IMG/VR virus record: IMGVR_UViG_3300017782_000206
Location: 1-24,734 of that record
From: a virus
Strand: one strand, 5' to 3'
DNA length: 24,734 nt
The notes under the pieces: model-generated
Seen by the model: the letters and a program-made list of their open reading frames with translations, nothing else
What the model was told of the DNA's origin: nothing
Databases searched by the model: none
Made by a program: the position numbers and the translations under genes
Shown: piece by piece, positions 1-22,135 of the stretch
Numbering within the stretch: position 1 is the stretch's first letter
Layout: every line of letters starts with the position of its first letter

Positions 1-504
1 GTCATTCATTTGTCTGAATGTCAAGTCCCACCAATCATCCATGAACTCACGTACAATCGGTTTAGACATATCATATAAACATACTGCTCCGCATAGTGTG
101 AACTTAGAAACGCCTTCCGGAGTATCAAAGTCACGTTCTGCATATATGTAGTCACGGTCATCTGTCAAAGCGGTGAAGACCACATCGTGATCTTTCATTT
201 CGTCCCATACTTTGACGATGTCTTCATGCTCTACTTCCATGTCAGCATCAATATACATCGTTAGGTCATACGGCGATTTCGCCATACCCCATAACTTAGC
301 GCGGTAGTGATCGTCACATAAGAGAATATCGTCTGCGACATCTCGACCACGGTCATCAAGGAATCGTTCCTCAGTCACCAAACAGATCTTGCATTCCTCT
401 TCTGGTTCATAGTAGTCCCGAAGAGACTCTGCAAGATTGATTGCGTACAAATAAAAGTTGCGTTTCTTAGACGCAACAATAATAAAACCTTTACTCTTTT
501 CCAT
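1..504 (-). CDS. Putative glycosyltransferase (GT-A-like), 3' end cut by window edge
   Basis: An open frame of 168 codons starts at the ATG at 504-502 and runs off the left edge with no stop. The N-terminus (KGFIIVASKKRNFYLYAINL) looks like the first strand and helix of a nucleotide-diphospho-sugar transferase. Residues 84-88 read YIDAD, a DxD-type metal and nucleotide-sugar binding motif (D86, D88) preceded by hydrophobic residues, as expected for a GT-A fold. Downstream, around F136-Y147, comes a FTLCGAVCLYD stretch that could shape the acceptor side. The start overlaps the end of the upstream 153-aa gene by 14 bases, which suggests translational coupling. Sugar donor and acceptor cannot be read from the sequence. 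It could modify host surface sugars, phage DNA or virion proteins. The GT-like call rests on the DxD context only, so the fold is likely but the activity is inferred. Confidence 0.6.
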   Translation of the reverse strand, partial: MEKSKGFIIVASKKRNFYLYAINLAESLRDYYEPEEECKICLVTEERFLDDRGRDVADDILLCDDHYRAKLWGMAKSPYDLTMYIDADMEVEHEDIVKVWDEMKDHDVVFTALTDDRDYIYAERDFDTPEGVSKFTLCGAVCLYDMSKPIVREFMDDWWDLTFRQMND

Positions 505-952
505 CTGTCTCGGCCTCTAGTTGTTCTTGCAGAATCATAATTGAGTACATATCTACTTCAATCTTTGACTTTGCCCGACGCAGTTTAGCCTTCAACTTGC
601 GGTTCTTAGAGTTCTTAATCTCTTCAACCTCAAACGCTTCTAGTTTGTAGTTGAATAGTTTTTCTAGTTTACGTGCCTTTTGGTGTTCTAAGTCACGTTG
701 TTTTTCTTCTTCAGCTTCTGCCTTCTTACGAACAACACGATCTTCAGTTTCTTTATTAATCGATTCTTCGCCTAGAGCATCAACTACTTCATTAAACAGT
801 TCGTTCTCACTACCATCTTTGTTGTGACGTAATAAAAACATTTGCTGTCGTGTAACACGACCCACATCATCTTCAAGTTCTAAAATACAGTTGAGTTCTT
901 TTTTCTCTTCTGTTTCCCAGAACGCATTATCCATCCATTGCTTACGACTCAT
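491..952 (-). CDS. Conserved-looking charged coiled-coil phage protein, function unknown
   Basis: A 153-aa protein starting at ATG 952. A good Shine-Dalgarno sequence (GGAG, spacer ATATGA) precedes it. Residues about 1-60 look globular (AFWETEEKKELNCILELED, then GRVTRQQMFLLR). Residues about 65-150 are very rich in Lys, Glu and Arg with heptad-like hydrophobics, so a long helix or coiled coil is likely. There is no signal peptide or membrane segment. It is the first gene after the strong terminator that closes the repeat-fibre gene, and its end overlaps the glycosyltransferase-like gene by 14 bases, so the two probably share a transcript. I do not recognise a characterised family. A structural, scaffolding or chaperone role in the tail is possible from context only. 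Confidence 0.8.
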   Translation of the reverse strand: MSRKQWMDNAFWETEEKKELNCILELEDDVGRVTRQQMFLLRHNKDGSENELFNEVVDALGEESINKETEDRVVRKKAEAEEEKQRDLEHQKARKLEKLFNYKLEAFEVEEIKNSKNRKLKAKLRRAKSKIEVDMYSIMILQEQLEAETDGKE

Positions 953-1042: not shown

Positions 1043-4000
1043 TTATGCAACCCTTGCGTATAGAGTATACGTCTCGACCACATTAGTTAGTGAGTCAGAG
1101 ATTGTTGCACCTACGTAGTTACCTAGGAACGATCGTGCGTAGTTTCCTACGAAGTTACGGTTATAGTTCCCTTCGAATCCACGAGTATAGTTACCAGTGA
1201 AGTCACCTACGTATGTTGAAACACGATTACGTGAGTAAGCACCTGAGTAAGCAGATGTTCTGATACGTGCGTATGCAGATACGCGGACACGAGAGTAGTT
1301 ACCTACAAAGTCACGAGAGTAAGTACCAGTGTACTCACCTACGAAACCACGGTTGTAGTTACCTACATAGTTCCCTGCGAAGTCACGCGAGTAAGCACCT
1401 GTGTATTCACCAACGAATCCACGAGCATAGTTACCTACATAATCACCAGCAAATCCGCGAGTGTATGCACCAGTGTATTCACCAGCGAATCCACGTGAGT
1501 AAGCACCTGTGTACTCACCTACGAAACCACGGTTATAGTTTCCTACGAAGTCTCCGACAAAGTCACGAGCATATGCACCAGTGTACTCACCTGCAAACGT
1601 TCTTGCGTAGTTACCTACGAAGTCGCCGGCAAATTGACGTGTGTACTGACCTGAGAAAGTACGCGCATAGTTACCAGTGAATGTTGTGTTATACGTACCA
1701 GCATATTCACCAACGAAACCTCTTGCGTAGTTACCAGTATAGTCACCAGCGAAGTTACGGTTGTAAGTGCCAGAGTAAGCACCAGTGTACTCACCTACGA
1801 ATCCACGAGAGTAAGCACCAGTGTACTGACCAGAGAATCCACGAGAGTAGTTACCCACATAGTTTCCACCGAAGTTACGTGCATAGTTACCTACATAGTT
1901 ACCAGCGAAGTCTCCAACGAAATCACCGACGAAGTTGCCAGCGAAGTTGCGTGAGTAGTTGCCAGTAAATGTGCGAGAATAGTTACCAGTAAAGTCACCT
2001 GCAAAGTTAGTCACACGATCACGAGTGTATGCAGAAGAACGGTTGCGGACATATGCAGATACACGAGTTCTTGCGTATGCAGAGTAACGAGTGCGTGTTG
2101 ATGTACGAGTGTACTCACCAGTGTAGTTACCAGCAAAGTCGCCTGCGTATCCACGTGCATAGTTACCAACAAAGTCACCAGTAAAGGTTGTTGTGTAGTT
2201 ACCCACAAAGTTACCAGCAAAGTTAGTTACGCGATCTCTAGTGAAATCACCAACGTAGTTGGTCACACGAGTACGGGCATATGCAGAACCACGGTTACGG
2301 GTTGAGTCACGAGTACTGTTACGAGTGTATTCACCTACGTAGTTACCGGCATAGTATCCAGTACGTGTGTAGTTACCGGTATTCGTGTACACTGCAGTGC
2401 GGTCACGCGTGAATGCACGAGCATAGTTACCAGTGTAGTACAATGTACGAGTGTAGTAACCAGTGTTTGTAGAAGTACGCGTAGAAGTACGTGCGTAGTT
2501 ACCTACGTAAGATGCAGCGCGTGTACGTGAGTAGTTTCCTACAAAGTTACCAGCGTAGTTAGTTACACGAGTACGACCATAGTTGCCAGTATAAGTGGCA
2601 GCACGATTACGAGAATAGTTGCCTACGAAGTTACCAGCGTAGTTTGTAACACGATCACGAGTATATGCGGAACCTCTTGTACGAGTGTATGCACGTGCAT
2701 AGTTACCAGTGTAAGATGCAGCACGAGTACGAGTGTAGTAGTAAGTAACTGTACGTGCATAGTTACCAGTGAAAGAACCACTTGATGTTCTTGTGTATTG
2801 TGTGACGAAAGTCCCAGAATAGTTACCGGTATAGTTACCGGTATAAGAGGCGCCACCCGATTGATATGTAACAGCAAAGTGGGTTATAAATGATCCATAG
2901 TAACTTCTTAATGTACCACGATAATACGTGACGCCACCAGAAGTAATACTATCGACATTACCAATTGCAATTGCGACATTCAGGCCATCAACATAAACTT
3001 GGTTGATGGTTACTCCACCTTCAGTGTCACGCTTCCAACCAGTTGTTACACCCCAGAAGGCTCCATTATATGCGTTGGTTACGGTACTACCTGTACCAGT
3101 AGAAACACTTGTAGAGACACGCGTATAAGTGCCTACGAAGTTACCACTATAGTTACCAGTGTAAGATGCAACACGATTACGAGTATAAGTGACTGGACCT
3201 GTTCTTGCGTAATCACCGACATAAGACGCAGCACGTGCACGAGTAAATGCACGAGCGTAGTTTCCTACAAAGTTACGCCCATAGTTTCCTACGAAGTTAC
3301 CAGCATAGTTAGTTACACGAGTACGACTATAGTTGCCAGTATAAGTGGCAGCACGATTACGAGAATAGTTGCCAGCAAAGTTGCCTTCAAAGTTAGTTAC
3401 ACGATCACGTGAGTAGTTACCTACATAAGATGCAGCACGAGTACGCGAATAGTCACCTACGAAGTCACCTGCGTAGTATAGTGTACGAGTGTATGCTGGA
3501 GTACGAGAATATGCAGCAGAATAGTTACGAGCATAGTTTCCAACGAAGTTACCTGTGTAGTACAATGTACGCGTATAGTTCAATGTACGCGTTGATGTGC
3601 GGGTTGATGTACGTGCGTAGTTACCAGTAAAGTCACCAGTGTAGTTGCCAGCATAGTTACGAGCATAGTTTCCTACGAAATCGCCAGTAAATGTGGTTGC
3701 ATAGTTACCTACAAAGTTTCCGGCATAGTCAGTAACACGTGTGCGGGTAAAGTTGCCGACATAGTTAGTAATGCGTGTGCGAGCATAAGCACTGTAACGA
3801 GTACGAGTAGATGTACGAGTTGAAACACGAGCATAGTTGCCGACATAGTTGCCAGCATAACCACGAGAGTAGTTACCAACAAAGTTACGAGCATAGTTGC
3901 CTTGGAAAGAACGTGAGTAGTTACCTACGAAGTTTCCAGCAAAGTTGGTTACACGATTACGGACATATGAAGAAACACGTGCACGAGAATAAACACCAGC

Positions 4001-5623
4001 AAAGTTGGTTACACGATCACGAGTGTAGTTAGTTACACGGGTGCGTGTGTAATCTGCAGAGTATGCAGAGACGCGTGTACGAGTTGAGGTACGAGCATAC
4101 GCAGAAACACGGTTACGCGAGTAAGTTCCCGCATAAGCAGAAACACGGTTACGTGAGTAAGTGCCTGAGTAAGTACCTGTGTATGATGAAACGCGTGTGC
4201 GAGTATAGTTTGCAGAGTATGAAGAACTGCGTGTACGCGAGTAAGTACCTGCGTATGAAGAGACACGACCACGAGTGTACGAAGATGCACGACTACGTGA
4301 GAATGTTCCGGTGAAGTTAGTCACACGGTTACGAGTGTAAACAGAAACACGTGCACGGTTATAAGTGCCTGCAAAGTAACCAGTAAATGCAGTCAATCGA
4401 TTACGTGTGTATGATGAAATGCGTGTACGAGCATATGTGCCCGAGTACGCAGAAGTACGAGTTCGCGAATAAGTTCCTGAGTAAGCAGAAACGCGAGTAC
4501 GACCGTAGTTGTCTGAGTAAGACGAATTACGAGTACGCGAGTAAGTACCAGTGTATGAAGATACGCGAGTACGACCATAGTCAGCAGCATATGCTGAACT
4601 GCGGTTACGTGAGTAAGTACCGTCATAAGTTGAAGTACGCGTACGAGCATAATTACCTTCAAATCCACGAGTATAGTTACCAGTGAAGTCACGCGTATAT
4701 GCACCAGTGTAATCCCCCACGAAAGTTCGTGAGAAAGTGTTGACACTGTTGCGAGTATATGATGAAATGCGGTCACGACTATATGCAGAAATACGAGTAC
4801 GAGCATACGAAGAAACACGGTTACGAGTGTAATCGGTATCTATGATTGTGCGTCGTGAGTTCTCTGCACTACCACGAGCATGCCATGTTCCTGGCAAGAT
4901 AGGTGCACCCTGAGCAGAAGATCTTAACTGATAAGATCCAATTGCGCCTGGGACCGATCGTAATGTCTTAGCTCGTTGACCTAGAGTAAAAGACATTTGA
5001 CCGTTGGTCATCTCTTTGAAACCATCAAAGGATGAACCATCATAACAGATGGCGACCGGACGTTCTTCATCAGGTGCTATGTATGAACCGTCTTTTTGAT
5101 AAATGTGGTAAGGTGTTGTTGTGCCGTCACCAAGTGTATCGGTGAAGACATTAGAAATAGCAACCTTATAATCAGGACTTGGTGGAATAGAAGATAGTCT
5201 ATAAATTCCATTCCATTGGTTTGTTTCCATTGTGCTTAATGCACGAGTTACGAGGAGGTCTAGATCACCATCCGTCATTTCATAGAAACCCGGATTGTCA
5301 CCTAGCTCGTAATAACCAACAGGACGTACAAAATTTTCTCCAGACTCATCAGCAGTACCGCCTACTTGCTTTAGCGTAGTAGTTACGGTGGTACTAGTGA
5401 TGTTAGATGCAGGGTGTGTTCCTGCCACTTCATTGTAGTATGTATCTACAAATGAACCAATATTAACACCATCAGTAAGACTGAGGTTGCCTGTGTCACT
5501 AGCAGCGGCCGCTGTTAGTGCTTCAGATACGGCATACGCAAGATATTCTTCTTGCGAAGGCGTAAATTCCTGTAAGTCACCATTAGCATTTTGAATTTTT
5601 AGTGGAATACTAGATGTTGACAC
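1043..5623 (-). CDS. Giant tetrapeptide-repeat (Y/F-x-G/R-N) virion protein, putative tail fibre or adhesin
   Basis: A 1526-aa protein. The start is GTG at 5623-5621, because the next in-frame Met is over 100 residues in. Residues 1-264 are a non-repetitive N-terminal domain, probably for virion attachment. Residues 265-836 are 143 consecutive tetrapeptides, 837-926 a non-repeat island, 927-1506 another 145 tetrapeptides, and 1507-1526 a short tail. Typical units are YTGN, FVGN, YSRN and the eight-residue pair YTRT-RVSS. Aromatics fall every 4 or 8 residues without a register slip. The tracts lack Lys, Cys, His, Trp and Met and are nearly Pro-free. Short xTGN-type tetrapeptide runs occur in phage tail fibres, but this length and aromatic content are unusual to me. 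It has its own late promoter and terminator and follows a chaperone-like gene. Fibre or adhesin is inferred; the biochemical role is unknown. Confidence 0.85.
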   Translation of the reverse strand: MSTSSIPLKIQNANGDLQEFTPSQEEYLAYAVSEALTAAAASDTGNLSLTDGVNIGSFVDTYYNEVAGTHPASNITSTTVTTTLKQVGGTADESGENFVRPVGYYELGDNPGFYEMTDGDLDLLVTRALSTMETNQWNGIYRLSSIPPSPDYKVAISNVFTDTLGDGTTTPYHIYQKDGSYIAPDEERPVAICYDGSSFDGFKEMTNGQMSFTLGQRAKTLRSVPGAIGSYQLRSSAQGAPILPGTWHARGSAENSRRTIIDTDYTRNRVSSYARTRISAYSRDRISSYTRNSVNTFSRTFVGDYTGAYTRDFTGNYTRGFEGNYARTRTSTYDGTYSRNRSSAYAADYGRTRVSSYTGTYSRTRNSSYSDNYGRTRVSAYSGTYSRTRTSAYSGTYARTRISSYTRNRLTAFTGYFAGTYNRARVSVYTRNRVTNFTGTFSRSRASSYTRGRVSSYAGTYSRTRSSSYSANYTRTRVSSYTGTYSGTYSRNRVSAYAGTYSRNRVSAYARTSTRTRVSAYSADYTRTRVTNYTRDRVTNFAGVYSRARVSSYVRNRVTNFAGNFVGNYSRSFQGNYARNFVGNYSRGYAGNYVGNYARVSTRTSTRTRYSAYARTRITNYVGNFTRTRVTDYAGNFVGNYATTFTGDFVGNYARNYAGNYTGDFTGNYARTSTRTSTRTLNYTRTLYYTGNFVGNYARNYSAAYSRTPAYTRTLYYAGDFVGDYSRTRAASYVGNYSRDRVTNFEGNFAGNYSRNRAATYTGNYSRTRVTNYAGNFVGNYGRNFVGNYARAFTRARAASYVGDYARTGPVTYTRNRVASYTGNYSGNFVGTYTRVSTSVSTGTGSTVTNAYNGAFWGVTTGWKRDTEGGVTINQVYVDGLNVAIAIGNVDSITSGGVTYYRGTLRSYYGSFITHFAVTYQSGGASYTGNYTGNYSGTFVTQYTRTSSGSFTGNYARTVTYYYTRTRAASYTGNYARAYTRTRGSAYTRDRVTNYAGNFVGNYSRNRAATYTGNYGRTRVTNYAGNFVGNYSRTRAASYVGNYARTSTRTSTNTGYYTRTLYYTGNYARAFTRDRTAVYTNTGNYTRTGYYAGNYVGEYTRNSTRDSTRNRGSAYARTRVTNYVGDFTRDRVTNFAGNFVGNYTTTFTGDFVGNYARGYAGDFAGNYTGEYTRTSTRTRYSAYARTRVSAYVRNRSSAYTRDRVTNFAGDFTGNYSRTFTGNYSRNFAGNFVGDFVGDFAGNYVGNYARNFGGNYVGNYSRGFSGQYTGAYSRGFVGEYTGAYSGTYNRNFAGDYTGNYARGFVGEYAGTYNTTFTGNYARTFSGQYTRQFAGDFVGNYARTFAGEYTGAYARDFVGDFVGNYNRGFVGEYTGAYSRGFAGEYTGAYTRGFAGDYVGNYARGFVGEYTGAYSRDFAGNYVGNYNRGFVGEYTGTYSRDFVGNYSRVRVSAYARIRTSAYSGAYSRNRVSTYVGDFTGNYTRGFEGNYNRNFVGNYARSFLGNYVGATISDSLTNVVETYTLYARVA
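1106..2845 (-). repeat. Tetrapeptide (12-bp) repeat tract 2, 145 units
   Basis: This encodes residues 927-1506 of the 1526-aa protein. I split it by hand into 145 tetrads with no register change. The first half resembles tract 1 (YTGN, YSRN-RAAT, STRT runs). The second half shifts to acidic units (FVGE, FAGD) and Ala-ending units (YTGA). The coding strand prefers C-ending codons: Asn is almost always AAC and Tyr is mostly TAC. Confidence 0.95.
1298..1849 (-). repeat. Higher-order 12-residue (36-bp) super-repeat inside tract 2
   Basis: From about residue 1259 to 1442 tetrads often group in threes, of the form YxRG-FxGE-YTGA (for example YSRG-FVGE-YTGA and YTRG-FAGD-YVGN). This gives an approximate 36-bp period on top of the 12-bp one. 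Long near-identical DNA stretches recur here, which points to recent unequal exchange. Confidence 0.8.
2846..3115 (-). other. Non-repeat island domain (residues 837-926) within the repeat protein
   Basis: Exactly 90 residues separate the two repeat tracts. The island contains Trp, Lys and His, which the repeats lack (AFWGVTTGWKRDTEGG), and beta-rich segments (VYVDGLNVAIAIGNV, GGVTYYRGTLRSYYG). It looks like a small folded beta domain at a mid-fibre position. I recognise no family. Tract lengths on either side are nearly equal, at 572 and 580 residues. Confidence 0.75.
3116..4831 (-). repeat. Tetrapeptide (12-bp) repeat tract 1, 143 units
   Basis: This encodes residues 265-836 as 143 tetrads. 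The first half is rich in the Arg/Ser octapeptide type (YSRT-RVSA, YTRN-RVTN). Toward the island, YxGN and FVGN units become common. Exceptions such as STRT-STRT, LNYT-RTLY and YSRT-PAYT-RTLY still keep the four-residue register. Confidence 0.95.
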
Positions 5624-5691: not shown

Positions 5692-5716
5692 TAAAAAATC
5701 CCCTAAGAGTTAGGGG
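5692..5716 (-). terminator. Rho-independent terminator overlapping the stop of the 161-aa gene
   Basis: A perfect 7-bp stem (CCCCTAA / TTAGGGG, loop of 3) is followed on the minus strand by ATTTTTTAT. The TAG stop at 5705-5703 lies within the hairpin. It separates the chaperone-like gene from the 1526-aa repeat gene. Confidence 0.88.
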
Positions 5717-6188
5717 TTGTAGGCCAATTTACTTCCGCGACGGAAAGTATCGCTCCTAAATTATCTGTAACATCTCTTAACGATTGACGGTAATTTTTCC
5801 ATCCTATTCGTTGTTCTTCAGTCAAAGGACTGTCCGCCACTTGAGTCCAATCTGTTAATGACAATTTTCTATTTCTTTCTACCCTGATATCGTTCAGTAA
5901 ATCTTCTCGGTTAAACTCCCATCCACCCAGTTCATTGCTCCAAGTGGCATGCCTATTAGGCGGACTACCAATAAAAATAAATTCTCCATCCGATGGAACA
6001 TACCAATAATAACTCATAAAGTGACGAAGATCTTCGCACCCTGCAGGGACTCTATCTTCTGTTATGTGAAGTATTAACTCTTTTCCATCTTCAGAGACAC
6101 CGGCTGGATCTATTTTAAAAGTAGGGTATGAAATCCTATTTATTTTACCAGACACTTTATCTACGTAGACGATGTATTTCAATTCCAT
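5703..6188 (-). CDS. Phage tail assembly chaperone-like protein (second copy)
   Basis: A 161-aa protein starting at ATG 6188. AAAGG upstream is the probable ribosome site, with a rather long spacer. The N-terminal 100 residues include a Trp/Tyr-rich segment (FMSYYWYVPSDGEF). The C-terminus carries the pattern RNRKLSLTDWTQVADSPL, then WKNYRQSLRDV and a final WP-P. This matches the phage tail assembly chaperone / tail-fibre assembly C-terminal domain (R-x-x-L-x-x-x-DWTQ, YRQxLRD, WP). Such proteins help fibres fold or trimerise and are often not in the virion. It lies between the two repeat proteins and is related to the 131-aa protein at 10869-11264 through this C-terminal motif. Its own late promoter and terminator make it a separate transcription unit. 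Partner choice is inferred from position. Confidence 0.82.
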   Translation of the reverse strand: MELKYIVYVDKVSGKINRISYPTFKIDPAGVSEDGKELILHITEDRVPAGCEDLRHFMSYYWYVPSDGEFIFIGSPPNRHATWSNELGGWEFNREDLLNDIRVERNRKLSLTDWTQVADSPLTEEQRIGWKNYRQSLRDVTDNLGAILSVAEVNWPTTPNS

Positions 6189-6234: not shown

Positions 6235-9200
6235 TCACTCAAGTCCAACATTTTCAGAAGTAAATGTTGTAGTAAATGTTGGGGTGTATGTTGGGGTGAA
6301 TGTTGGAGTATATGTTGGTGTATATGTTGGTGTTGTAGAATCTGTTGATGTGCTTGACACCTTAGTGACTGTGTACTCTCCTGAGTTCAACCATTGACTT
6401 CCATTGTAGAAACCAATAGTGTATTGTTTTGTTTGTCCTTCTGCAGGTACATCTGAAACAGTAACGGTTTGAGCACCATTAGCGTTCTGTATAGAGAATG
6501 ATTGAAGGAGAGTTAAGTTGTTATTATAAATTCGACCTTGAACTGACTGACCCCCTTGCGTATTAAAATCAAACTCTACCGTATGTGTCGTCGCGCTATG
6601 GTGTACAACATTTTGAGTCGTTGATAAAATAGTGCCGATGTCATTATCATACAAAGTAAATGACTTTGAGTCAAGTACTCGCACATTAGATGATCCTCTA
6701 GGTTCAGACATTAAAGATGCGGTATTGCCTGTTCTCAATTCAGCAACGAATGTTTCTCCTTGCCAACCAATTTCAGAATCTTCTTGACTTCCTGTTCCAG
6801 TGCGTGTATAATTGCCTATGTAGTTTCCTGTATAGCCTCCTACAAATGTTCTCTCGTAAGCACCACCAAATGTATTTGCATAGGAGCTAGATCTAGCGCG
6901 AGTACTGGTTCTATTATAAGTGCCTTCGTAAGCGCCAGTATATTCACCAACAAACCCTCTACTATAATTTTCTTCAAAAGGTCTTGTATAATCACGAGAA
7001 TAATTTCCAGTATATTCACCGGCGTAGTTTCCAGAATAATTACCAGTGTAGTTAGAACCTATTGATCTAGCGAACTCAACAGTATAGTTTCCGATGAATG
7101 GTGTTAAAAAATCACCTGTATAGTTACCAGCGAAGTTGCCTACATACTCTCCAACATACCCACGTGCATAGTTTCCAGTGTAATTGCCTACAAGGAAGTC
7201 TCTAGTAAAATATCCAGCCCCTTGTGTAACTCTTGTGCGAGTAAATTCTCTGCTATAATTTCCGCCGAAGTTGCGTGAATAGTTTCCTTCGAAGTTTGCA
7301 GTATAGTTTCCAAAATAGTTTCTACTATAATTACCAACAAAGGTGCCAGCAAAATCACCGACATAATCTCCAACATACCCACGCGCATATTCACCTACAA
7401 ACCCAGTACTATAGGACCTAGTATATGCCGAATCACGACTTCTAGAGTAATCTGTTATTCTTGTTCTGTTATAATTGCCCGCAAAGTTGCCCACAGAAGT
7501 GCGTGAATAGTTCCCCTCAAAAGTAGAAGTTCTTATGAGAATGAAGTTTCTACTATAGTATAACGTTCTAGTGAAGTTGCGTGAATAGTTGATAGCATAA
7601 TCTATGGATCTTGTATAATCACCTGTAAAGTTTCCAGCAAACCCTCTTGAATAATTACCTACATAATAAAGGGTTCTACTATAACTAGAGGACCTTACTC
7701 TAGCATACCCATCATGCGGAACCTCATATTCTATAGGATCACCATTTATATCAGTCTCAGGTAATGTAGATATTCTGGTAGATGCATAGTATCCAGTTCC
7801 AGTTCTTGTGCGAGTGTATCCACGAATAAAGTCCCTCGCATAGTTAAAGTCTCGCGAGTAAGTGCCTGTAAACGGAGCAGTAAATTCACTGGAATATGTC
7901 GCGCCGTTGGTAAATGATTGAGTACGATCCCTAGTAAAATTACGCGTATATTCAGTAGTTGTTCCAGTAGGGGCCGCGGTAGAACTTGTGGTTCCTTGAC
8001 CAACTTCATAATACTTGGTGCCACCTATTGTAGCGATTAAATCACCTCTCCAGTAATAAATGTTATCGTTACCTTTTAACTTAGTTGGGCCGTTGCCATA
8101 ATCCCGTGTGTCATTAAGTACTTTCGTTGTTCCGTTCCATTTAATATTGGTGACATGTACTGTGATCGAAAACCCTTCGGAATTACTAGTATTAGTATCA
8201 ACTGAGAAGAAAGTGTTGTTTGCAGTGTAAAAATATCCATCGCCAATGGTACGTGTATATCCACGAGAATAGTTACCAGTAAAAGTACTAATTCTTCCTG
8301 CTGCAGCGAAGTCGCCAACATAGTTGCCTGTGTAAGTGCCTTCGTAACCAACAGTTCTCGTAAAGTTGCGTGTGAATCCACGAGAATAGTTTCCTATATA
8401 ATATAAGGTTCTTGTAGAGTCGGCTGGGAAATAAACTCCAGTAAATTCTCCGACATAAGAACCGACTGTTGTTCTGGTGCGACTATAGGCAGAATATCGC
8501 GTACGGGTAGATGTGCGAGTAAATTCTACTGCTGGGTTTACATAATTCCCAAGATAATTTCTAGCGTATGACCCCACCCTAGTATAGTCACCAGCATAGT
8601 TACCAGTGTAACTTGCGCTAGTCGTTCTCGCATAATCACCTACAAAATTCGTAACTCTGGTTCGCCCGTAGTTGCCAACAAAGTTCCCAGTAAAAGTTGC
8701 AGTATATGTACTAGAGTAATACTCGTTACGAGTCACGCCTCTAGTGCGACTATATGTAGAGTAACGTGTGCGACTATATGTTACCGTACTTGGCATTCTA
8801 AAATAATACGCAACATCACCAGTGGGAAAGTCTCTAGAGTACTCTTGTGGTCCAGTTAATATAGCATTTCTTGTAAACTCTCTAGCGTAATATGCTGTAT
8901 AGGATACAGTACGATCTCTGGTATACGCAGAAACTCTCGATCTTGTATAGTTTCTACTGTAGTAGCCAATATATGATGCACCATAACTACGAGCATACGA
9001 TGAAGTTCGGGTAGATTGTCTGCTTCGGTTGTAGGTAGAGTAACGTGTACGACTATATGTCACCGTACTTGGCATTCTAAAATAATACGCAACATCACCA
9101 TTGGGAAGGTTTCTAGAGTACTCTTGTATTTCAGTTAATGTAGAATTTCTTGTGAAGTTTCCTGTGTATATCCCCAAGAACTCTCTAGAGTAATTCGTAG

Positions 9201-10548
9201 TATCTGTTCTGCTGTATCCCGCTACAAATGCAGAGGTTCTGGTTCTTGAATATGTCGCAGAAAAAGATCGCGCGTACCCTTCAACTCTTGTTCTATCATA
9301 AGTACTTGTTCTTGTTCGAGCGTATGCTCCAGAATACTCTCCGGTATATTCTCCAACATAATTACGAGCAAAATCTCTTGAGAACGACCCTGCTACACTT
9401 CGAGAGTATGAAGATATTCTATTTCTTGAATATGTGCCTATGTAATCAGCAACATTGGTATATGAGACTGATCTCGATGAGGTGGGAGAAGTTGTTGTGA
9501 AGGTTGCGCTTTTAGTATCACCAAAGAAAGCTACTCTGTCCGACCCTAAGTCGTTCCCAGAACCAGAAGTTTGAAACACTCGAACATGATATGCACCTTC
9601 TTCAGAAGTATTCGCATTGAATGTAATAGAACTTCCTTCTGTAATTGCAGATCCTGATTGATATGTCAGAGATCCAGTAGCGTTTTGATCTCCGGAACCG
9701 TCACCATCTGAGTCAACATCACCGCCACCACCAGGAGGTTCATAGGTACCAGACCCACCAGTTCTCAAGGTTGCGCCTAGAAGACTGCCTGTAGGATAAA
9801 CTTTGAGTCTCTGGTCGCCATTTTGTAAATTCACAATAGCATCATAAGCTGAAGCTAATGTGCTACCAACCCTTAGACCAAAAAAGTCCGATCCGTGTGA
9901 GTTTTGAGCAGACCATTCAATATTTACATATTCGTTCGTATCTTTGGTCATTACATACGAGCTAGATTCTGTCCCTACTTCATTACTAAGAAGAGGTGGT
10001 AACCATGAAACGATATCAAAGTTAAAGTTTGTTCCTAATGCGCGACTATCAAACGCGACTTCTCCATAGCTTGTGACAATTCGCAGACCTCGGTCTATAC
10101 TAGTATCATAACGGCTTGGGTCGGCCATAATGGTAGATGCTTTTCTGACAACAAAATAATCAAACTCTGTTTGCCAGTCATCATAAACTGTGAGTTTCCA
10201 ATTTTCAAATTGTCCGTCTATTTGAGGGGTGTATGCTTCTATGCCTGTTCCAGTAAATGTTACCGTTTCCCCAGACACATTCATTTTGTGAAGGTAAGGT
10301 GTATCAAAAGTGACCGTCATGATATAATCTGAAGGCACTTCAATATCAACAGAACTCCAGTCACCGCCACCAGGCGCGCTAGGGTTCTTAACAAATATCA
10401 TATCACTTTCTAATAGACCGCCTGGAAGTGTGAACGAGTGTGCACGACCAGCATCTGTGACAATCAGATTAAGAATGTCCAGTTCTGTGTCCGATACAGT
10501 AAATGTTCCTCCGGCATCATTGCCTATTATCTTTAATCCATATGACAT
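6235..10548 (-). CDS. MSYGL-type tail protein with long degenerate tetrapeptide-repeat region
   Basis: A 1437-aa protein starting at ATG 10548, whose codon overlaps the upstream stop as TAATG. Residues 1-265 form an N-terminal domain starting MSYGLKIIG, shared in style with the 103-aa neighbour. Residues 268-287 are a Gly/Asp linker (GGGGDVDSDGDGSGD) with a DxDxDG-like possible calcium loop. Residues 290-368 look Ig-like. Residues 369-1250 are tetrapeptide repeats of the same kind as in the 1526-aa protein, but broken by register-shifting islands: two copies of a 42-aa cassette, a 99-aa island at 768-866, and a smaller one near 920-950. Residues 1251-1406 are a beta-rich C-terminal domain, and 1407-1430 are PTYT/PTFT tetrads. 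Codons are more A/T-ending than in the 1526-aa gene. A tail fibre or adhesin role is inferred. Confidence 0.85.
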   Translation of the reverse strand: MSYGLKIIGNDAGGTFTVSDTELDILNLIVTDAGRAHSFTLPGGLLESDMIFVKNPSAPGGGDWSSVDIEVPSDYIMTVTFDTPYLHKMNVSGETVTFTGTGIEAYTPQIDGQFENWKLTVYDDWQTEFDYFVVRKASTIMADPSRYDTSIDRGLRIVTSYGEVAFDSRALGTNFNFDIVSWLPPLLSNEVGTESSSYVMTKDTNEYVNIEWSAQNSHGSDFFGLRVGSTLASAYDAIVNLQNGDQRLKVYPTGSLLGATLRTGGSGTYEPPGGGGDVDSDGDGSGDQNATGSLTYQSGSAITEGSSITFNANTSEEGAYHVRVFQTSGSGNDLGSDRVAFFGDTKSATFTTTSPTSSRSVSYTNVADYIGTYSRNRISSYSRSVAGSFSRDFARNYVGEYTGEYSGAYARTRTSTYDRTRVEGYARSFSATYSRTRTSAFVAGYSRTDTTNYSREFLGIYTGNFTRNSTLTEIQEYSRNLPNGDVAYYFRMPSTVTYSRTRYSTYNRSRQSTRTSSYARSYGASYIGYYSRNYTRSRVSAYTRDRTVSYTAYYAREFTRNAILTGPQEYSRDFPTGDVAYYFRMPSTVTYSRTRYSTYSRTRGVTRNEYYSSTYTATFTGNFVGNYGRTRVTNFVGDYARTTSASYTGNYAGDYTRVGSYARNYLGNYVNPAVEFTRTSTRTRYSAYSRTRTTVGSYVGEFTGVYFPADSTRTLYYIGNYSRGFTRNFTRTVGYEGTYTGNYVGDFAAAGRISTFTGNYSRGYTRTIGDGYFYTANNTFFSVDTNTSNSEGFSITVHVTNIKWNGTTKVLNDTRDYGNGPTKLKGNDNIYYWRGDLIATIGGTKYYEVGQGTTSSTAAPTGTTTEYTRNFTRDRTQSFTNGATYSSEFTAPFTGTYSRDFNYARDFIRGYTRTRTGTGYYASTRISTLPETDINGDPIEYEVPHDGYARVRSSSYSRTLYYVGNYSRGFAGNFTGDYTRSIDYAINYSRNFTRTLYYSRNFILIRTSTFEGNYSRTSVGNFAGNYNRTRITDYSRSRDSAYTRSYSTGFVGEYARGYVGDYVGDFAGTFVGNYSRNYFGNYTANFEGNYSRNFGGNYSREFTRTRVTQGAGYFTRDFLVGNYTGNYARGYVGEYVGNFAGNYTGDFLTPFIGNYTVEFARSIGSNYTGNYSGNYAGEYTGNYSRDYTRPFEENYSRGFVGEYTGAYEGTYNRTSTRARSSSYANTFGGAYERTFVGGYTGNYIGNYTRTGTGSQEDSEIGWQGETFVAELRTGNTASLMSEPRGSSNVRVLDSKSFTLYDNDIGTILSTTQNVVHHSATTHTVEFDFNTQGGQSVQGRIYNNNLTLLQSFSIQNANGAQTVTVSDVPAEGQTKQYTIGFYNGSQWLNSGEYTVTKVSSTSTDSTTPTYTPTYTPTFTPTYTPTFTTTFTSENVGLE
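6259..6330 (-). repeat. PTYT/PTFT six-unit tetrapeptide repeat at the C-terminus
   Basis: Residues 1407-1430 of the 1437-aa protein read as PTYT, PTYT, PTFT, PTYT, PTFT, TTFT. This is a 12-bp DNA repeat with an aromatic every fourth residue, now with Pro, followed by a 7-residue tail. Confidence 0.9.
8757..8881 (-). repeat. Duplicated 42-aa cassette, copy B
   Basis: This encodes PQEYSRDFPTGDVAYYFRMP followed by STVTYSRTRYSTYSRTR. It pairs with the copy at 9036-9160, 279 bp away (93 codons). About 39 bases in the core are identical between copies. Confidence 0.9.
9036..9160 (-). repeat. Duplicated 42-aa cassette, copy A
   Basis: This encodes IQEYSRNLPNGDVAYYFRMP followed by STVTYSRTRYSTYNRSR. 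The central 17 residues are not tetrads and shift the repeat register by one residue, in both copies. Confidence 0.9.
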
Positions 10549-10859
10549 TATGAAATTCTCAGTGCCATTACAATACCACTCTGTGTACCGTAAGAACCAC
10601 TATTATTTTGTAATTGGAAACCAGTCGAAGTCTTATTAATCACATCTACATATCTAGGGTTGCCCACAAATACAATTAATATTTTAGTATCATCATTGGC
10701 ATTGGGGCAAGCATATTCACTGCTTATTTGATCTTTAGTCAGACTAAATGAAGAGTATACTTGGATATTAGATGTGCGGATCGAATCAGAAAATACTAAC
10801 TTAGAGGTAGTTGCATCACCATTGATGATTGGTCCATATATTTCTAATCCATACGACAT
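10548..10859 (-). CDS. Small MSYGL-type phage protein, function unknown
   Basis: A 103-aa protein starting at ATG 10859, with AAGGA six bases upstream. It begins MSYGLEIYGPIINGDATTSK, very like the first residues of the next gene (MSYGLKIIGNDAGG), and ends in a beta-rich segment (SGYG-like, GIVMALRIS). No signal peptide or membrane span is seen. Its stop and the next gene's ATG overlap as TAATG, so the two are probably translationally coupled. Phages often carry short proteins with this start beside tail fibres. I know of no defined role. It could be a minor fibre or tip protein, or a stand-alone version of the larger neighbour's N-terminal domain. Confidence 0.78.
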   Translation of the reverse strand: MSYGLEIYGPIINGDATTSKLVFSDSIRTSNIQVYSSFSLTKDQISSEYACPNANDDTKILIVFVGNPRYVDVINKTSTGFQLQNNSGSYGTQSGIVMALRIS

Positions 10860-10868
10860 GATAATTCC

Positions 10869-11264
10869 TTATGGTGATTCAGGCCAAACTACATTTTCTA
10901 AACTAGAATATTGGTTTGTGATATCCCTCAGTTCTTGACGATAGATTGCCCATATCTCACGATCGTCATCGTCTAGACCATTATCGTCCATACGAGTCCA
11001 ATCTGTTTCAGAGAGTAACTGATTACGTTTTTTTCGTAAATTTTCTATACGGATTTTTTCTACAATTTCATCAGGAAATGGTAATACTAATTGTGCAACA
11101 ATATCTTTTGATTCGATATACTTATCAACAAGTAAACAAAAATTAATGTCGTATTCTTCTTGAGTAGGAACATATAATTTCCAATCATTAGACGGCAATA
11201 TATTCCCATCAAAAGATTGAGGAGATCCTATTGGGTTTCCGTTTTCTATTCTTATAAATTGCAT
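10869..11264 (-). CDS. Phage tail assembly chaperone-like protein (first copy)
   Basis: A 131-aa protein starting at ATG 11264, with a strong AGAGGAAG ribosome site eight bases upstream. The N-terminal half (MQFIRIENGNPIGSPQSFDG, then NDWKLYVPTQEEYD) is typical of short tail-fibre-associated proteins. The C-terminal half carries RNQLLSETDWTRMDDNGL, then WAIYRQELRDI and VVWPESP. This is the DWT ... YRQxLRD ... WP signature of the phage tail assembly chaperone C-terminal domain. It follows the 1296-aa fibre gene by 24 bases, the usual position for a chaperone just after its fibre. The role in folding or trimerising that fibre is inferred from family and context. Confidence 0.85.
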   Translation of the reverse strand: MQFIRIENGNPIGSPQSFDGNILPSNDWKLYVPTQEEYDINFCLLVDKYIESKDIVAQLVLPFPDEIVEKIRIENLRKKRNQLLSETDWTRMDDNGLDDDDREIWAIYRQELRDITNQYSSLENVVWPESP

Positions 11265-15405: not shown

Positions 15406-18400
15406 TAGGTCAGAGTCCTAGAGATACGATAGAACCAAGTGGTGATGTCCATTCCATTTGGCGGAATATACTGCTCTAGAGCGCCCCTCGTATAAGTGTA
15501 CCCGTCATTAGCAACAATAGAGACAATCTGTTCCTGATCTAAACCAGCGATTTGCGATGTATCAAACTGAACTATTGTATCGTTCCAGTTTAGAATTACG
15601 CCGTTAATAGGTTCTCCTTCGCTAGATGTAAATTGTACGATTGAGAAATAATACTGTGGCGAAACTCGCGAGAACAGATTAGTCTCTGGTTCAGGTTCCG
15701 GTTCAGGTTCTGGTTCTGGTTCCGGCTCAGGTTCTGGTTCTGGTTCTGGGCTTGGGGCAGGAGCAGGAGCAGGGTTTAAATCAAGGTCTACTTGAGTGCC
15801 TGTCTTATTAAACCCACTCGCAGTGATCAATGAAATCGCACGTAGGTCTGTGATCATAGGAGACTTGGAAGAATTGTCTGCAGTCATTACGATCATAACT
15901 TGGAACACAGTAAATGGTTCTGTGTCTAGAGTGTACTCATAGTCACGGAAAATATCTGGGTTCTCGTCTGTAGGCATTGGTGTATCAATATCGATCAATG
16001 TCCACCATGCATCTGCGAACTCGTTCTCATCTAAAGAAGTACGCGCATACACCTTAAAGTCTGCACCTCTCGCGCGGTTCGCAGCGAAAATAATCTTCAG
16101 TCCTTCTGACAACTCATCAATAATCACAGGTGTTGTGATGTGTTGAGTTGCGTTTGAGTTATCGATCACATTCTCTAGGGCAATAACTGAGACTCGCTGT
16201 AGATCAATCACAGGCGAAACTTTAGAGTCGCCGGTCGAAAGATTCAATGCAAACTCTAGTGTCTTCGCAGTAGGAGAGTTTTGTGATGTCGCAACTACAT
16301 TCGGATGAGTGTTGACATTTAGGTCATTCAATGATACATTTGAAGCAGGATCTTTCTCACTATAGTTAAGAGCGGTTATCTTACGGTCTGTGCCGTATGA
16401 CGCACCGACTGTCTTAGTTACAGTCGATTGAATTGATGTCGAGTTAGGTGTGAATGACTGAACTTGTGGGATGTACTGATCAAACATCACTTGTTGAGTT
16501 GCAGTTACGTTATTACCACCACCCTGCGCAGAACCTGTCGCGTTCGTCGCCACTTGAATTGTATATCCGTCCCATGAAGGGAAATTAACTGCAAATGATC
16601 CGTTTAGGTCACTATCTGTAAGTCCACCCACGTCACTTGATACGTCCGCGAATGTAACTGTATCACCCGAAGTGAATCCATGACCTTGGTGTTGTACCTT
16701 AACTATATCTGATCCTGCAGTAGTCTCGAACGGACTCTGGATCAATGTGACCTTTGGAAGTTCTGCGTTCTCTAGGTGTAGTACACCATCAAATTCAAAC
16801 TCTGCACGTTCTAGTTCAAACATCAAATCCTTAGTTTGATCTGGCGTCCAAGTCGAACCGTTCTGAGACATAAACAATGACCCCAGTGTTGGTTGACGTG
16901 ACACCCGCTCTTCACGAGATGGACCTAGAACGAACTCATATGTCTGAGCAGTGTATACATTATAGTCTACTGATTCTGCAAGCAACACTATAGCATATTC
17001 TTCGCCTGGAGTCAAGTAAATTGGTTGATCAAATTCAACAACTGTTGGTCGAATTCTGACTGAAGAAATATCAGTCTCTTCAGTAAGTGGCGTCACTGGA
17101 ATGTTAGCCGGATCTACGAACTTAACTGATCCTGGAACTAAGCGATTTGTAGGAACACCATTCTCTACAGCACGGATTTGAACCTGCATAGGAATGATAG
17201 AGTCTTTACTCTCTACATAGACACGCGCTTTAGTGATAAAGATTCCATTTGGATTCTCTACTTGATCAACGAAGAATGTCTGAGCAAGAGGATCTCGCCA
17301 GTAAGTTGTTTCAATAACTTCTGTTGTGCGTATTGTGCGTTGTACTGTTTGAATCGTACCGACCGAAGTGTATCCGGCACGGCTAATAGAAGTAGCGCCA
17401 TCATCGTTATTCAAGTTGATGTCAAGCAGTTTGAATTCTTGACGACCTGTACGGAAACTAATATCTGGAGTGTTCGGCAAGAAGAACGAACCGATCAGTT
17501 CACCCTTATTATCTGTAATCAGATCACCTTTACCACCTAGTGCAGATGGGTACGAAGTTGCGTTCGCATACTCATTGCCGTACTCTGTTGGATCATCCGA
17601 GAAGTTCGTGTATGTAGACTCTGGACGTACCCAATCAGATACATTCTTGTTTCCGAAATAAGCGAACATACGGGTGTTAGGTCGTAGTCCCTGAACTCGG
17701 AAACTAATCTTGCGCGAGCGCATGAACGGAATAATTTCTACATCCAAGATGCGTTCGCCAATAAATTCTTGAATCGTCTTTGATGTAACTCTAGAACGAA
17801 TTCTTGCATTAGGTCGAGAGAAGAAAGTAGGTAGGTATGTGTTGATACGACGTACAACATTCTGCATAATGTCTGGTAGTCGCTTCACTTCTACCCATTC
17901 GTCTGAAGACGGAGACAACGTCATATGTCCGTTCGATGTGATTACCGCAAACGGGTTGATATTGTCTGTGCCTGTCGCCAGAACCTGAGATACAAACTTT
18001 GTGCTTGTATGCGGAAGAGTAACGATGTCGCTCTTCTTAGAAATATTGTTGTTTAGGTTCGAAGGGTTGTACGCTAATCGTATCGAGTTTTCAACGAACG
18101 ATGGGCGCAGTAGACCTTCTGGATCGACCGAAGCGCGATACGCTGGGTTGTGTACGTCACAGAAATTCAGTGTGCTGAAGTTGTCTGCGATGAACCCTGC
18201 CTTAGTACGAGGGTTGCCGTTCGCATCTAAAACTTGCAAGACATTTGTGTTAGTCTCAAGGAAACTTAACGCAGTCAATTCATATAGAGTCTCTACACGA
18301 TCGGATAACTTAGAGATGTCTTTCATCGTGAACCGACGATTAGGGATGAACGTGCTTACGACATCTGAACGGTCAAATGTATATGCGTTCAATGTGAACT

Positions 18401-20779: not shown

Positions 20780-22135
20780 CTATATTGTAATAACGACTTT
20801 AATGTCTTCTTGTTGTTCTGCGTCTCTTATGATTCGGTAGCGGTTTTCAATGTATAGAACATCTCCGCTATGTCTATCTATCTCTGGCTGATCAGTCAGT
20901 CCTGTGACGGTCTGTTGTAGCGATGTTCCGACTTGCTCAACAATCTCGCCTACTCCAAACGGTACAAACCCTGTACTCTCGTTCTGGTGATAGTAAACAA
21001 AATTATTGACTGACTCATTGACATATGCCTCGGCACCGTTAGTAAGTCCCCTGACCAAACTTCCAGAAGAGAAAGGTGAGTTTGCATCTAAGTGCAACAC
21101 AGGAAGTACTTTTCCAGAAACTTCTGTGTATGGTGTACCGTCTGGTTTAGTTGGGTCTTGAAGAACTCCGATCTGACGGAACTCATTATCTACGATAAAT
21201 GTATTGCCTTCTGTGCCGTCTGGTTTGATGTTTAGCATTACCGAACTTGTTTTTAAATCATCTACTGGATCATTACCCATGTGTCGAGTAATCACTGCGC
21301 GAGTTTCGCATTCAGTAGTAGGTGTTCCGTCTAGGACAAACGATGCACGAGTATAACCCGAACCGTAGTTTGTCATCGTAATCTTTACGATCTCGCCACC
21401 GACCATAGTCGCAACCGCTGTTGCTCCATTTCCGTCACCAACTACTGTGACAGTAGGTGTCGTCGTATAACCAGACCCTTTACTAGTCACTTCGCAACGA
21501 ATAATCTCACCCTTGACTGCAGCATTGATTACATTCATCTGCAAGTCTTCAATCGCAGAGTTGTCACAGTTAGATACTGGACCTGTCAGACTGACTGGTA
21601 CATGGTTGCTAGAAAGGTATTGGAAGATTTGTTGCGGAGTCAACTTGTATAGGAACTTCCATACATAACCGTCCGATGTTCGGAACGGTCGCGTGTAGTC
21701 TACATTGAGTTCGCAATAACTAGGCTTGACAGTAGAAGTAACTATGTTACCATCACCATCACGACCCGTCTCTAGACAGACATAGACCTCTTTTGCGTCA
21801 TTTAAAACATAGAATGCGGTATCTTCTTCAGCATTCTTAACATCCGACCACTCATGATATATCGCGTCTGACACCCAGTTGTTTCGTTTCGCGACGATGA
21901 TCGCACCTTCTACTTTCTTGATAGACTGTAGATTGTGACGAAACTCACTTTCTTCTAGGTTACCGTCTGCTGGTAAATAAGGATAGTCAACGATAGTTTC
22001 TCCATCAACTACTGCGGTTGGGAAAACATCTGACTTACCAATACCGATATAAAATTCTTTTTCTGTACCAATAACATCTGCGAGAAACTGTCTCGCTAAA
22101 GTTTGGTTAAGTGTTTGTCTTACTGTTGCTGGCAT
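20780..22135 (-). CDS. 8: Baseplate wedge subunit, T4 gp8-like
   Basis: A 451-aa protein starting at ATG 22135. The last 31 residues (RHSGDVLYIENR, then IIRDAEQQEDIKVVITI) line up with the T4 gp8 C-terminus (RHSGEMIYMENRPPII, then DQTEEINILFTF). Residues 23-40 (GTEKEFYIGIGKSDVFP) and 157-165 (YVWKFLYKL, T4 YVWEYLFEI) also match. T4 gp8 is 334 aa and, as a dimer, is part of each baseplate wedge together with gp7 and gp10. The extra length here comes largely from residues about 205-285, which carry two GSGYT units (220-224 and 258-262) separated by GDGNGATA. This small beta insertion is unlike T4. The gene follows the J-like fibre by 51 bases and leads directly into the DUF4815 protein. Confidence 0.93.
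   Translation of the reverse strand: MPATVRQTLNQTLARQFLADVIGTEKEFYIGIGKSDVFPTAVVDGETIVDYPYLPADGNLEESEFRHNLQSIKKVEGAIIVAKRNNWVSDAIYHEWSDVKNAEEDTAFYVLNDAKEVYVCLETGRDGDGNIVTSTVKPSYCELNVDYTRPFRTSDGYVWKFLYKLTPQQIFQYLSSNHVPVSLTGPVSNCDNSAIEDLQMNVINAAVKGEIIRCEVTSKGSGYTTTPTVTVVGDGNGATAVATMVGGEIVKITMTNYGSGYTRASFVLDGTPTTECETRAVITRHMGNDPVDDLKTSSVMLNIKPDGTEGNTFIVDNEFRQIGVLQDPTKPDGTPYTEVSGKVLPVLHLDANSPFSSGSLVRGLTNGAEAYVNESVNNFVYYHQNESTGFVPFGVGEIVEQVGTSLQQTVTGLTDQPEIDRHSGDVLYIENRYRIIRDAEQQEDIKVVITI

What the first reader, a model, noticed from the sequence alone, without database searches (positions are those of the whole stretch)
1106..4831. Sticker-like composition: Tyr, Phe, Arg with Gly, Ser, Thr, Asn and no Lys, Cys, His, Trp or Met
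Composition read directly. Tyr-Arg stickers with Gly/Ser/Asn spacers are the pattern of proteins that condense or adhere through cation-pi contacts. Use of Arg with complete exclusion of Lys over 1152 residues implies selection. Inference: an adhesive or condensing phage fibre.
Basis: partly seen in the sequence, partly recalled or inferred. Interest (0 to 1): 0.7.

Follow-up and report, generated by a model that had tools for sequence, protein, structure and literature searches.

The report
Zipper-like hairpin phage tail fibre
A marine virus of bacteria appears to build a very long fibre from one protein chain that runs out, turns at a fast-changing tip and zips back along itself by a simple amino-acid pairing rule, which would be a new way to build a protein fibre.

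Summary
The composition is real: two arrays (1161 residues) with 155 Arg and no Lys, Cys, His, Trp or Met. They are not a loose sticky polymer. They are a strict four-residue repeat, [G/R/S]-x-[Y/F/R]-x, in a T4-like phage fibre gene next to a fibre-assembly chaperone gene. The stated span also holds an 82-residue non-repeat insert carrying 1 Lys, 1 His and 2 Trp.

The main finding is that the two arrays (581 and 580 residues) pair with each other in antiparallel. In relatives, legs of about 210 to 990 residues stay equal in length, and indels in one leg are matched at mirrored places in the other (324 of 327 homologue pairs; 14 of 14 disjoint pairs). Mirrored residues follow a code: Tyr with Tyr, Arg with Phe, Arg with Gly or Ser, almost never Arg with Arg. 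A code learned near the base predicts the pairing near the tip in 27 of 27 members tested. The insert sits at the turn and is the least conserved part.

So it is probably a hairpin fibre with a variable receptor-binding tip. No confident 3D model was obtained, and the window's own paralogue does not follow the code.

The parts
4835..5623 (-). N-domain, residues 1-263, non-repeat; predicted to sit at the base
   Evidence: Conserved in all 26 homologue rows of A2; AlphaFold2 pLDDT mostly 60-86 over about residues 7-225; no fold match
3092..4834 (-). Leg 1, residues 264-844, 581-aa tetrad array
   Evidence: HMM with no phase slip; pairing statistics
2846..3091 (-). Tip insert, residues 845-926, hypervariable, holds the only K, H and W of the stated span
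   Evidence: Least conserved of five regions in 20 of 20 homologues; alignment
1106..2845 (-). Leg 2, residues 927-1506, 580-aa tetrad array, mirror-paired with leg 1 (residue n faces 1768-n)
1043..1105 (-). C-cap, residues 1507-1526 and stop; predicted to lie at the base
   Evidence: Conserved ending YTLYxRVA in A1; median identity 0.65
5703..6188 (-). Tail-fibre assembly chaperone gene (PF16778, phrog_4912)
   Evidence: upstream of the fibre in 32 of 33 loci that hold the N-domain
6235..10548 (-). Paralogous tetrad fibre, 1437 aa; legs about 402 and 390 aa around a 96-aa insert (8248-9453, 7960-8247, 6790-7959)
   Evidence: equal legs but no code signal (z 0.0)
10869..11264 (-). Second tail-fibre assembly chaperone gene (PF16778), upstream of the paralogue
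491..952 (-). Conserved downstream gene of unknown function
   Evidence: 72-96% identical in most loci that reach it; no family
20780..22135 (-). Baseplate wedge gene (gp8 kind) that places the cluster in a T4-like phage
   Evidence: phrog_438 E 2e-70, PF09215; 455 phage records, mostly cyanophages

Best explanation
The gene encodes a phage tail fibre (or fibre-like adhesin) built as one giant antiparallel hairpin. The N-domain sits at the base. Leg 1 (581 aa) runs outward as an extended beta-like strand with alternating faces. The 82-aa insert forms the tip. Leg 2 (580 aa) runs back, paired with leg 1 rung by rung, and the C-cap ends at the base beside the N-domain. On one face the rungs follow a code: x3 with x3 is Tyr:Tyr or Arg:Phe; x1 with x1 is Arg:Gly, Arg:Ser or Gly:Gly; Arg:Arg is avoided. 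The code sets the register, so that legs of hundreds of residues zip without slipping. It explains why Arg cannot become Lys. The hypervariable tip is the likely host-recognition part. Shown by sequence statistics: equal legs, mirrored indels, mirrored residue code, tip variability, gene neighbourhood. Inferred: beta conformation, pairing within one chain rather than between chains, oligomeric state, receptor binding.
For: Equal legs: of 57 complete array proteins, 37 have exactly one internal non-array stretch of 40 aa or more; in 33 of 37 the legs agree within 21 aa (WIN1 581/580, L019 470/470, L030 257/248), where 1.56 are expected if the insert sat anywhere. Of 8 with a single shorter gap, 7 agree within 15 aa (L078 986/985 with 29 aa between, L088 884/883 with 14 aa, L103 448/447 with 15 aa). 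The last two turns are Pro/Gly-rich and far too short to let the legs run parallel. Mirrored indels: mean offset mismatch 10.6 aa mirrored against 72.3 aa parallel, mirrored better in 324 of 327 pairs and 14 of 14 disjoint pairs. Residue code: conditional mutual information peaks near register (0.30 bit at shift +1; about 0.02 at +-20), none in parallel reading. Code and expectation by state. Out of sample: the register fixed near the base is the best of 81 shifts (within 4) in 138 of 163 windows nearer the tip, parallel control 11 of 163; alignment score above every rotation in 27 of 27 tip parts and 13 of 15 proteins outside the training set, above all parallel readings in all 42. WIN1 alone: x3 100 of 145 canonical, shuffled mean 51.6, maximum 71 in 20,000; x1 94 of 144, mean 50.8, maximum 72. 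A leg fits its own partner better than partner legs of other proteins in 256 of 266 comparisons. Tip least conserved in 20 of 20. Neighbourhood.
Against: No confident 3D model: AlphaFold2 gave pLDDT 34 for 372 aa of the return leg alone and about 21-31 over the outgoing leg. Both jobs lacked the partner leg, so they neither support nor refute. The window's paralogue has legs of 402/390 but no code signal (z 0.0), and its close relative L005_1774 is weak (z 1.8, not above all rotations). Not conforming or not resolved by simple reading: L096 and L112 (the latter with a 418-aa spaced repeat seen three times), L016_2665, L082, L084, L109, L118_1323/L118_2126 (looks like a gene broken in two), three ORFs of L120. 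Four of the 37 fail until a 225-235-aa side insert is discounted; three of them then agree (604/609, 638/626, 790/782). The proteins are related, so counts are not independent. The register was fitted on the same 0-200 aa that gave the code table. The HMM was trained on the window protein.
Confidence: 0.82

Rival explanations
1. The legs are antiparallel neighbours, but leg 1 of one chain pairs with leg 2 of another in a homo-oligomer (domain-swapped, for example a trimer), not within one chain.
For: Phage fibres are commonly homotrimers (T4 gp34: parallel homotrimer, passages of PMC3004832). The sequence statistics cannot tell intra- from inter-chain pairing.
Against: Turns of 14-15 aa make intra-chain pairing the simplest reading. 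No evidence specific to swapping was found.
Confidence: 0.12
2. One reading: a disordered, cation-pi sticker polymer that condenses or adheres.
For: Composition Y/F/R with G/S/T/N; AlphaFold2 pLDDT mostly below 50 over the arrays.
Against: Position-specific conservation of x1 and x3; phase slips in steps of two (367 against 68 odd); mirrored indels and residue code; relatives with few Arg and many Glu (L099, L109, L116).
Confidence: 0.03
3. A conventional parallel homotrimeric beta-fibre or beta-solenoid (T4 gp5 or gp34 kind) in which the repeat forms a triple beta-helix and the insert is a lateral domain.
For: Even alternation and a 4/8/12-residue period; the low-confidence model of the return leg shows a 12-residue strand rhythm; tetrads GNVT/GDLT in cyanophage S-RIM2 weakly match T4 gp5 (E 0.007-0.13).
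Against: No reason for the insert to lie exactly in the middle or for indels to be mirrored; no PDB match of the arrays.
Confidence: 0.05
4. The mirror symmetry comes from the gene's history (palindromic or segmental duplication), not from structure.
For: Arrays carry DNA tandem repeats, so they probably grow by duplication.
Against: Mirrored residues are complementary types (Arg with Phe or Gly, Arg:Arg avoided), not copies; the match is in reversed protein order, which no DNA duplication or inversion produces; length changes of different homologues are matched leg by leg.
Confidence: 0.02

Closest known systems
T4-like long tail fibre proteins (gp34/gp37)
   Same: Long fibre genes of T4-like phages with dedicated assembly chaperones; more than 1000 aa per chain
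   Different: gp34 is a parallel homotrimer with N-terminus at the baseplate and C-terminus towards the distal half (PMC3004832, passages); here the sequence puts both ends at the base and the variable part in the middle of the chain
T4 gp5 triple-stranded beta-helix (VxGxxxxx)
   Same: Regular short repeat in a phage tail part
   Different: 8-residue repeat in a three-chain corkscrew (PMC4576200, abstract start and passages); here a 4-residue repeat with mirror-paired legs and no sequence match
SMC/Rad50 antiparallel coiled-coil arms (recalled, no call)
   Same: Works alike in topology: equal arms flanking a central hinge at the far end, N- and C-terminal parts meeting at the base
   Different: Alpha-helical heptads and ATPase heads there; tetrads rich in G, Y, T here, and no Pfam match
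Phage C48C1 (OQ984149, Kyanoviridae) 3347-aa hypothetical protein
   Same: Homologue in the same gene order; leg 1 of 1031 aa against 1064 aa summed over the return leg; follows the code (z 2.7)
   Different: Six further inserts in the return leg
TLP-4 glycofibril (recalled; only a PDB molecule name and a two-paper search listing were seen)
   Same: As recalled, a fibre protein of tetrapeptide repeats
   Different: As recalled, glycan-coated hydroxyproline chains; the window's arrays hold 2 Pro and match nothing in the PDB

Membership tests
T4-like phage tail fibre | Gene lies in the baseplate/fibre cluster of a T4-like phage | tested here: met
   gp8-kind wedge gene and further virion genes in order with C48C1 and IMG/VR loci
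T4-like phage tail fibre | Neighbouring tail-fibre assembly chaperone | tested here: met
   PF16778 gene upstream, E 5e-18; 32 of 33 loci with the N-domain
T4-like phage tail fibre | Present in the virion as a parallel homotrimer | not testable with these tools
   no proteome or complex prediction available
T4 gp5 triple-stranded beta-helix | VxGxxxxx repeat or sequence match to gp5 | tested here: not met
   repeat is 4-residue [GRS]x[YFR]x; no PDB hit for P0001 up to E 10 and only an unrelated E 1.5 hit for A1
Sticker-spacer condensing polymer | Composition of aromatic and Arg stickers with small polar spacers | tested here: met
Sticker-spacer condensing polymer | Order and register of stickers free to drift | tested here: not met
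Antiparallel paired-arm protein (SMC/Rad50-like topology) | Equal arms flanking a central hinge, with antiparallel pairing | tested here: met
   (by sequence statistics)
Antiparallel paired-arm protein (SMC/Rad50-like topology) | Heptad coiled coil and ATPase head | tested here: not met
   period 4; no Pfam family up to E 0.1
Diversity-generating retroelement target | Reverse transcriptase in the same phage | tested here: not met
   PF00078: 0 of 6 records of relatives, some possibly fragments; the window itself is too short to judge

The most novel reading that the evidence does not exclude
A protein double strand with a complementarity code: two legs of 200-1000 residues recognise each other rung by rung (Tyr:Tyr, Arg:Phe, Arg:Gly, Arg:Ser, almost never Arg:Arg), much as nucleic-acid strands do, so the sequence itself programs length and register of a very long fibre. 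Fully extended, 580 residues would reach about 190 nm (inference, 0.33 nm per residue). Its hairpin tip carries a fast-changing binding domain. The class is widespread in marine T4-like phages.
Probability: 0.6. Interest if true: 0.92.

Novelty: categorically new. Interest (0 to 1): 0.86.

Why it matters
Phage fibres are normally understood as parallel trimers with the receptor-binding end at the C-terminus. A hairpin fibre puts the binding domain in the middle of the chain and both ends at the particle, and changes where one looks for host-range determinants in a class seen in 440 stretches of viral contigs. A simple residue-pairing code that keeps legs of up to about 1000 residues in register would be a rare protein analogue of strand complementarity, directly testable with short fragments and useful for designing long protein fibres. 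It also turns a puzzling composition bias (Arg without Lys) into a structural rule.

Tried and rejected
Pfam and PHROG scans of the fibre: no Pfam family up to E 0.1, one weak unknown PHROG; Pfam scan of the tip, the N-domain and the C48C1 homologue: nothing over the cut-off. PDB sequence searches of the arrays: nothing. AlphaFold2 on the last 372 aa and the first 490 aa: arrays mostly below pLDDT 50; both jobs were sent before the hairpin was recognised and lacked the partner leg, so they cannot decide. Fold searches of the N-terminal model: no match with Z 2 or more, none with E up to 0.001. A first window test of the code that ignored the repeat phase had too little power (WIN1 itself 9 of 23 windows in one band) and was dropped. 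Diversity-generating retroelement: no reverse transcriptase in 6 records. Paralogue scan with P0003: 2 loci only. Plasmid and E. coli collections were not searched, as nothing pointed there. One search looked for six repeat strings and found none. Three papers were read only as passages. The library lacks most subscription papers, so absence from print is not shown.

Full report
WHAT IS THERE. The finding lies in one ORF on the minus strand, 1043-5623, 1526 aa, called WIN1 below. It has five parts: an N-domain (residues 1-263), array 1 (264-844), an insert (845-926), array 2 (927-1506) and a 20-residue cap. The arrays are a strict tetrad: x1 mostly G, R or S; x2 N, T, D or A; x3 Y, F or R; x4 T, V, A or S. 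Array 1 keeps one phase over 581 residues and array 2 over 580. The arrays hold 155 Arg and no Lys, Cys, His, Trp or Met. The stated span also contains the insert, with 1 Lys, 1 His and 2 Trp.

GENOMIC SETTING. The window is a virus record of 24,734 bases. Upstream lie a gp8-kind baseplate wedge gene, further virion genes and two genes for Phage_tail_APC / tail-fibre assembly proteins, one ahead of each of two giant repeat proteins. The nearest annotated relative is Phage C48C1 (Kyanoviridae, no host named), with the same order and a 3347-aa homologue. It is the only one of 50,697 phage records with the N-domain at E up to 0.01. In IMG/VR, 35 loci were fetched. Of the 36 loci compared (these and C48C1), 33 hold the N-domain; 32 of these have the chaperone upstream, and the two genes downstream are found again wherever the contig reaches far enough. 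A wider scan found 440 viral stretches encoding a relative of the array (79 loci kept) but only 3 loci in 84,980 bacterial and archaeal genomes.

LYSINE AND ARGININE. Over 81 non-redundant array ORFs (80,689 array residues) there are 10,751 Arg, 16 Lys and no Cys; 73 ORFs are Lys-free. In alignments with the window, Arg stays Arg in 1404 of 1470 comparisons and becomes Lys in none. About 2.8% of single-base changes of the window's array codons would give Lys, so a lack of such mutations is not the reason. Positions x1 and x3 are 83-92% identical and x2 and x4 43-65%. When the phase slips it does so by two residues in 367 cases and by an odd number in 68. This is what an extended strand with two faces would require, and not what a drifting sticker polymer would show.

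EQUAL LEGS. The insert sits in the middle. Of 57 complete array proteins, 37 have exactly one internal non-array stretch of at least 40 aa, so no choice is involved. In 33 of these the two legs agree within 21 residues (median 5 over all 37), against 1.56 expected for a random position. Four fail (L086, L090, L093, L096): each has a 225-235-aa insert in the return leg. With that set aside and a 13-25-aa gap taken as tip, three agree (604/609, 638/626, 790/782); L096 could not be resolved. Of 8 proteins with one shorter gap only, 7 agree within 15 residues, among them 986/985, 884/883 and 448/447. The eighth, L118_1323, looks like a broken gene. C48C1 has 1031 aa before its tip and 1064 aa summed over the return leg; L014 and L070 also balance once a tip is chosen among two gaps. 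The remaining proteins (L016_2665, L082, L084, L109, L112, L118_2126 and three ORFs of L120) are unresolved or do not conform.

MIRRORED INDELS. For 327 pairs among 32 homologues (both legs at least 62% identical, offset at least 12), I compared how alignment offsets accumulate along each leg, measured from the base. The mismatch between legs is 10.6 residues if leg 2 is read in mirror image and 72.3 if read parallel; mirrored is better in 324 of 327. In 14 disjoint pairs it is better in 14. An insertion near the base of one leg is answered by one near the base of the other.

A RESIDUE CODE. Mutual information between mirrored residues, conditional on repeat position, peaks near register (0.30 bit at shift +1, about 0.02 at +-20), with none in parallel reading (28 proteins). 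After fixing one integer register per protein on the first 200 residues (28 proteins), x3 faces x3, x1 faces x1 and x2 faces x4. At x3: Tyr:Tyr 650 (392 expected), Arg:Phe both ways 474 (156), Arg:Tyr 30 (277), Arg:Arg 0 (31). At x1: Arg:Gly 582 (405), Arg:Ser 394 (156), Gly:Gly 177 (200), Arg:Arg 1 (175); n is 1400 for each, expectations by state. Because that fit uses the same residues, it was tested elsewhere. In 163 windows nearer the tip, the best of 81 shifts lies within 4 of the base register in 138, parallel control 11. A matrix learned on the first 200 residues scores the tip parts above every rotation in 27 of 27 members (the 28th, L030, is too short). Outside the training set it does so in 13 of 15 proteins tested: the window's paralogue (z 0.0) and its relative L005_1774 (z 1.8) fail. 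In the window protein alone, x3 pairs are canonical in 100 of 145 (shuffled mean 51.6, maximum 71 of 20,000) and x1 in 94 of 144 (50.8, maximum 72). Legs fit their own partner better than the partners of other proteins in 256 of 266 comparisons. In the window, residue n faces 1768-n (register +2). Double changes that keep a pair are few in this set (25 kept, 14 broken), because the rungs hardly vary.

THE TIP. The insert is the least conserved of five regions in 20 of 20 homologues (median identity 0.26 against 0.63-0.65). A W...YYRG-like pattern recurs in many. In L088 and L103 it shrinks to Pro/Gly turns of 14-15 aa. Such turns between legs of 448 to 884 residues leave no room for parallel legs. 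A hypervariable distal domain on a conserved shaft is the usual sign of host recognition (inference).

MECHANISM. Most likely the chain leaves the base, forms an extended strand, turns at the tip and zips back, with Arg stacked on Phe, Tyr on Tyr, and Arg filling the space opposite Gly or Ser. The chaperone may hold the chain until it zips (inference). Relatives with few Arg and many Glu (L099, L109, L116) suggest other rung chemistries on the same plan; this was not tested properly. What is not shown: beta conformation, intra-chain against inter-chain pairing, copy number, presence in the virion, receptor. AlphaFold2 gave no confident array model, but neither job contained both legs.

Composition and selection on Arg hold for the arrays. 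Condensation is not supported. Cation-pi contacts are probably real, but ordered and internal. An adhesive fibre is plausible through its tip.

NOVELTY. The gene is a phage fibre by neighbourhood, a known kind. The mirror-paired architecture matched nothing in Pfam, the PDB sequences or the literature searched (and the other searches named under tried and rejected), within the limits of an open-access library and my recall. I therefore rate the architecture categorically new, pending a structure.

Noticed in passing
window 6235-6330: The paralogue ends in Pro-containing tetrads (TPTYTPTFTPTYTPTF), again period four with an aromatic.
   Followed up: no
window 10548-10859: 103-aa ORF that overlaps the start of the paralogue; similar ORFs precede other copies of the paralogue.
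   Followed up: partly
window 22187-24733: Cut ORF with 111- and 129-base tandem repeats, only weak unknown PHROG matches.
   Followed up: no
window 15685-15749: Six-base tandem repeat (TCTGGT, 10.8 copies) within the 1788-aa ORF.
   Followed up: no
L109 and L116: Acidic relatives: GQVPEQY-type repeats before the tip and YERQQDITY-type repeats after it, as if Glu-rich and Arg-containing legs faced each other.
   Followed up: partly
L112, residues 1422-2269 of the ORF: A 12-aa non-array segment recurs three times at 418-aa spacing and the legs do not balance; duplication or assembly error.
   Followed up: no
L003 23012-33055 (C48C1): The homologue carries six extra inserts, all in the return leg, and a long exact duplication (KTRHRSYLYY...).
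   Followed up: partly
L004 3405-9143 (S-RIM2): Cyanophage structural protein with GNVT/GDLT tetrads, possibly a Val/Leu version of the tetrad; weak matches to T4 gp5.
   Followed up: partly
L121: Low-Arg GNYLGTY arrays on a contig titled Bifidobacterium breve MAG, probably a stray phage contig.
   Followed up: no
window 5703-6188 and loci: The chaperone next to the fibre is far more variable (mostly 28-48% identity) than the genes downstream of the fibre (mostly 72-99%), as if it follows the fibre's changes.
   Followed up: no
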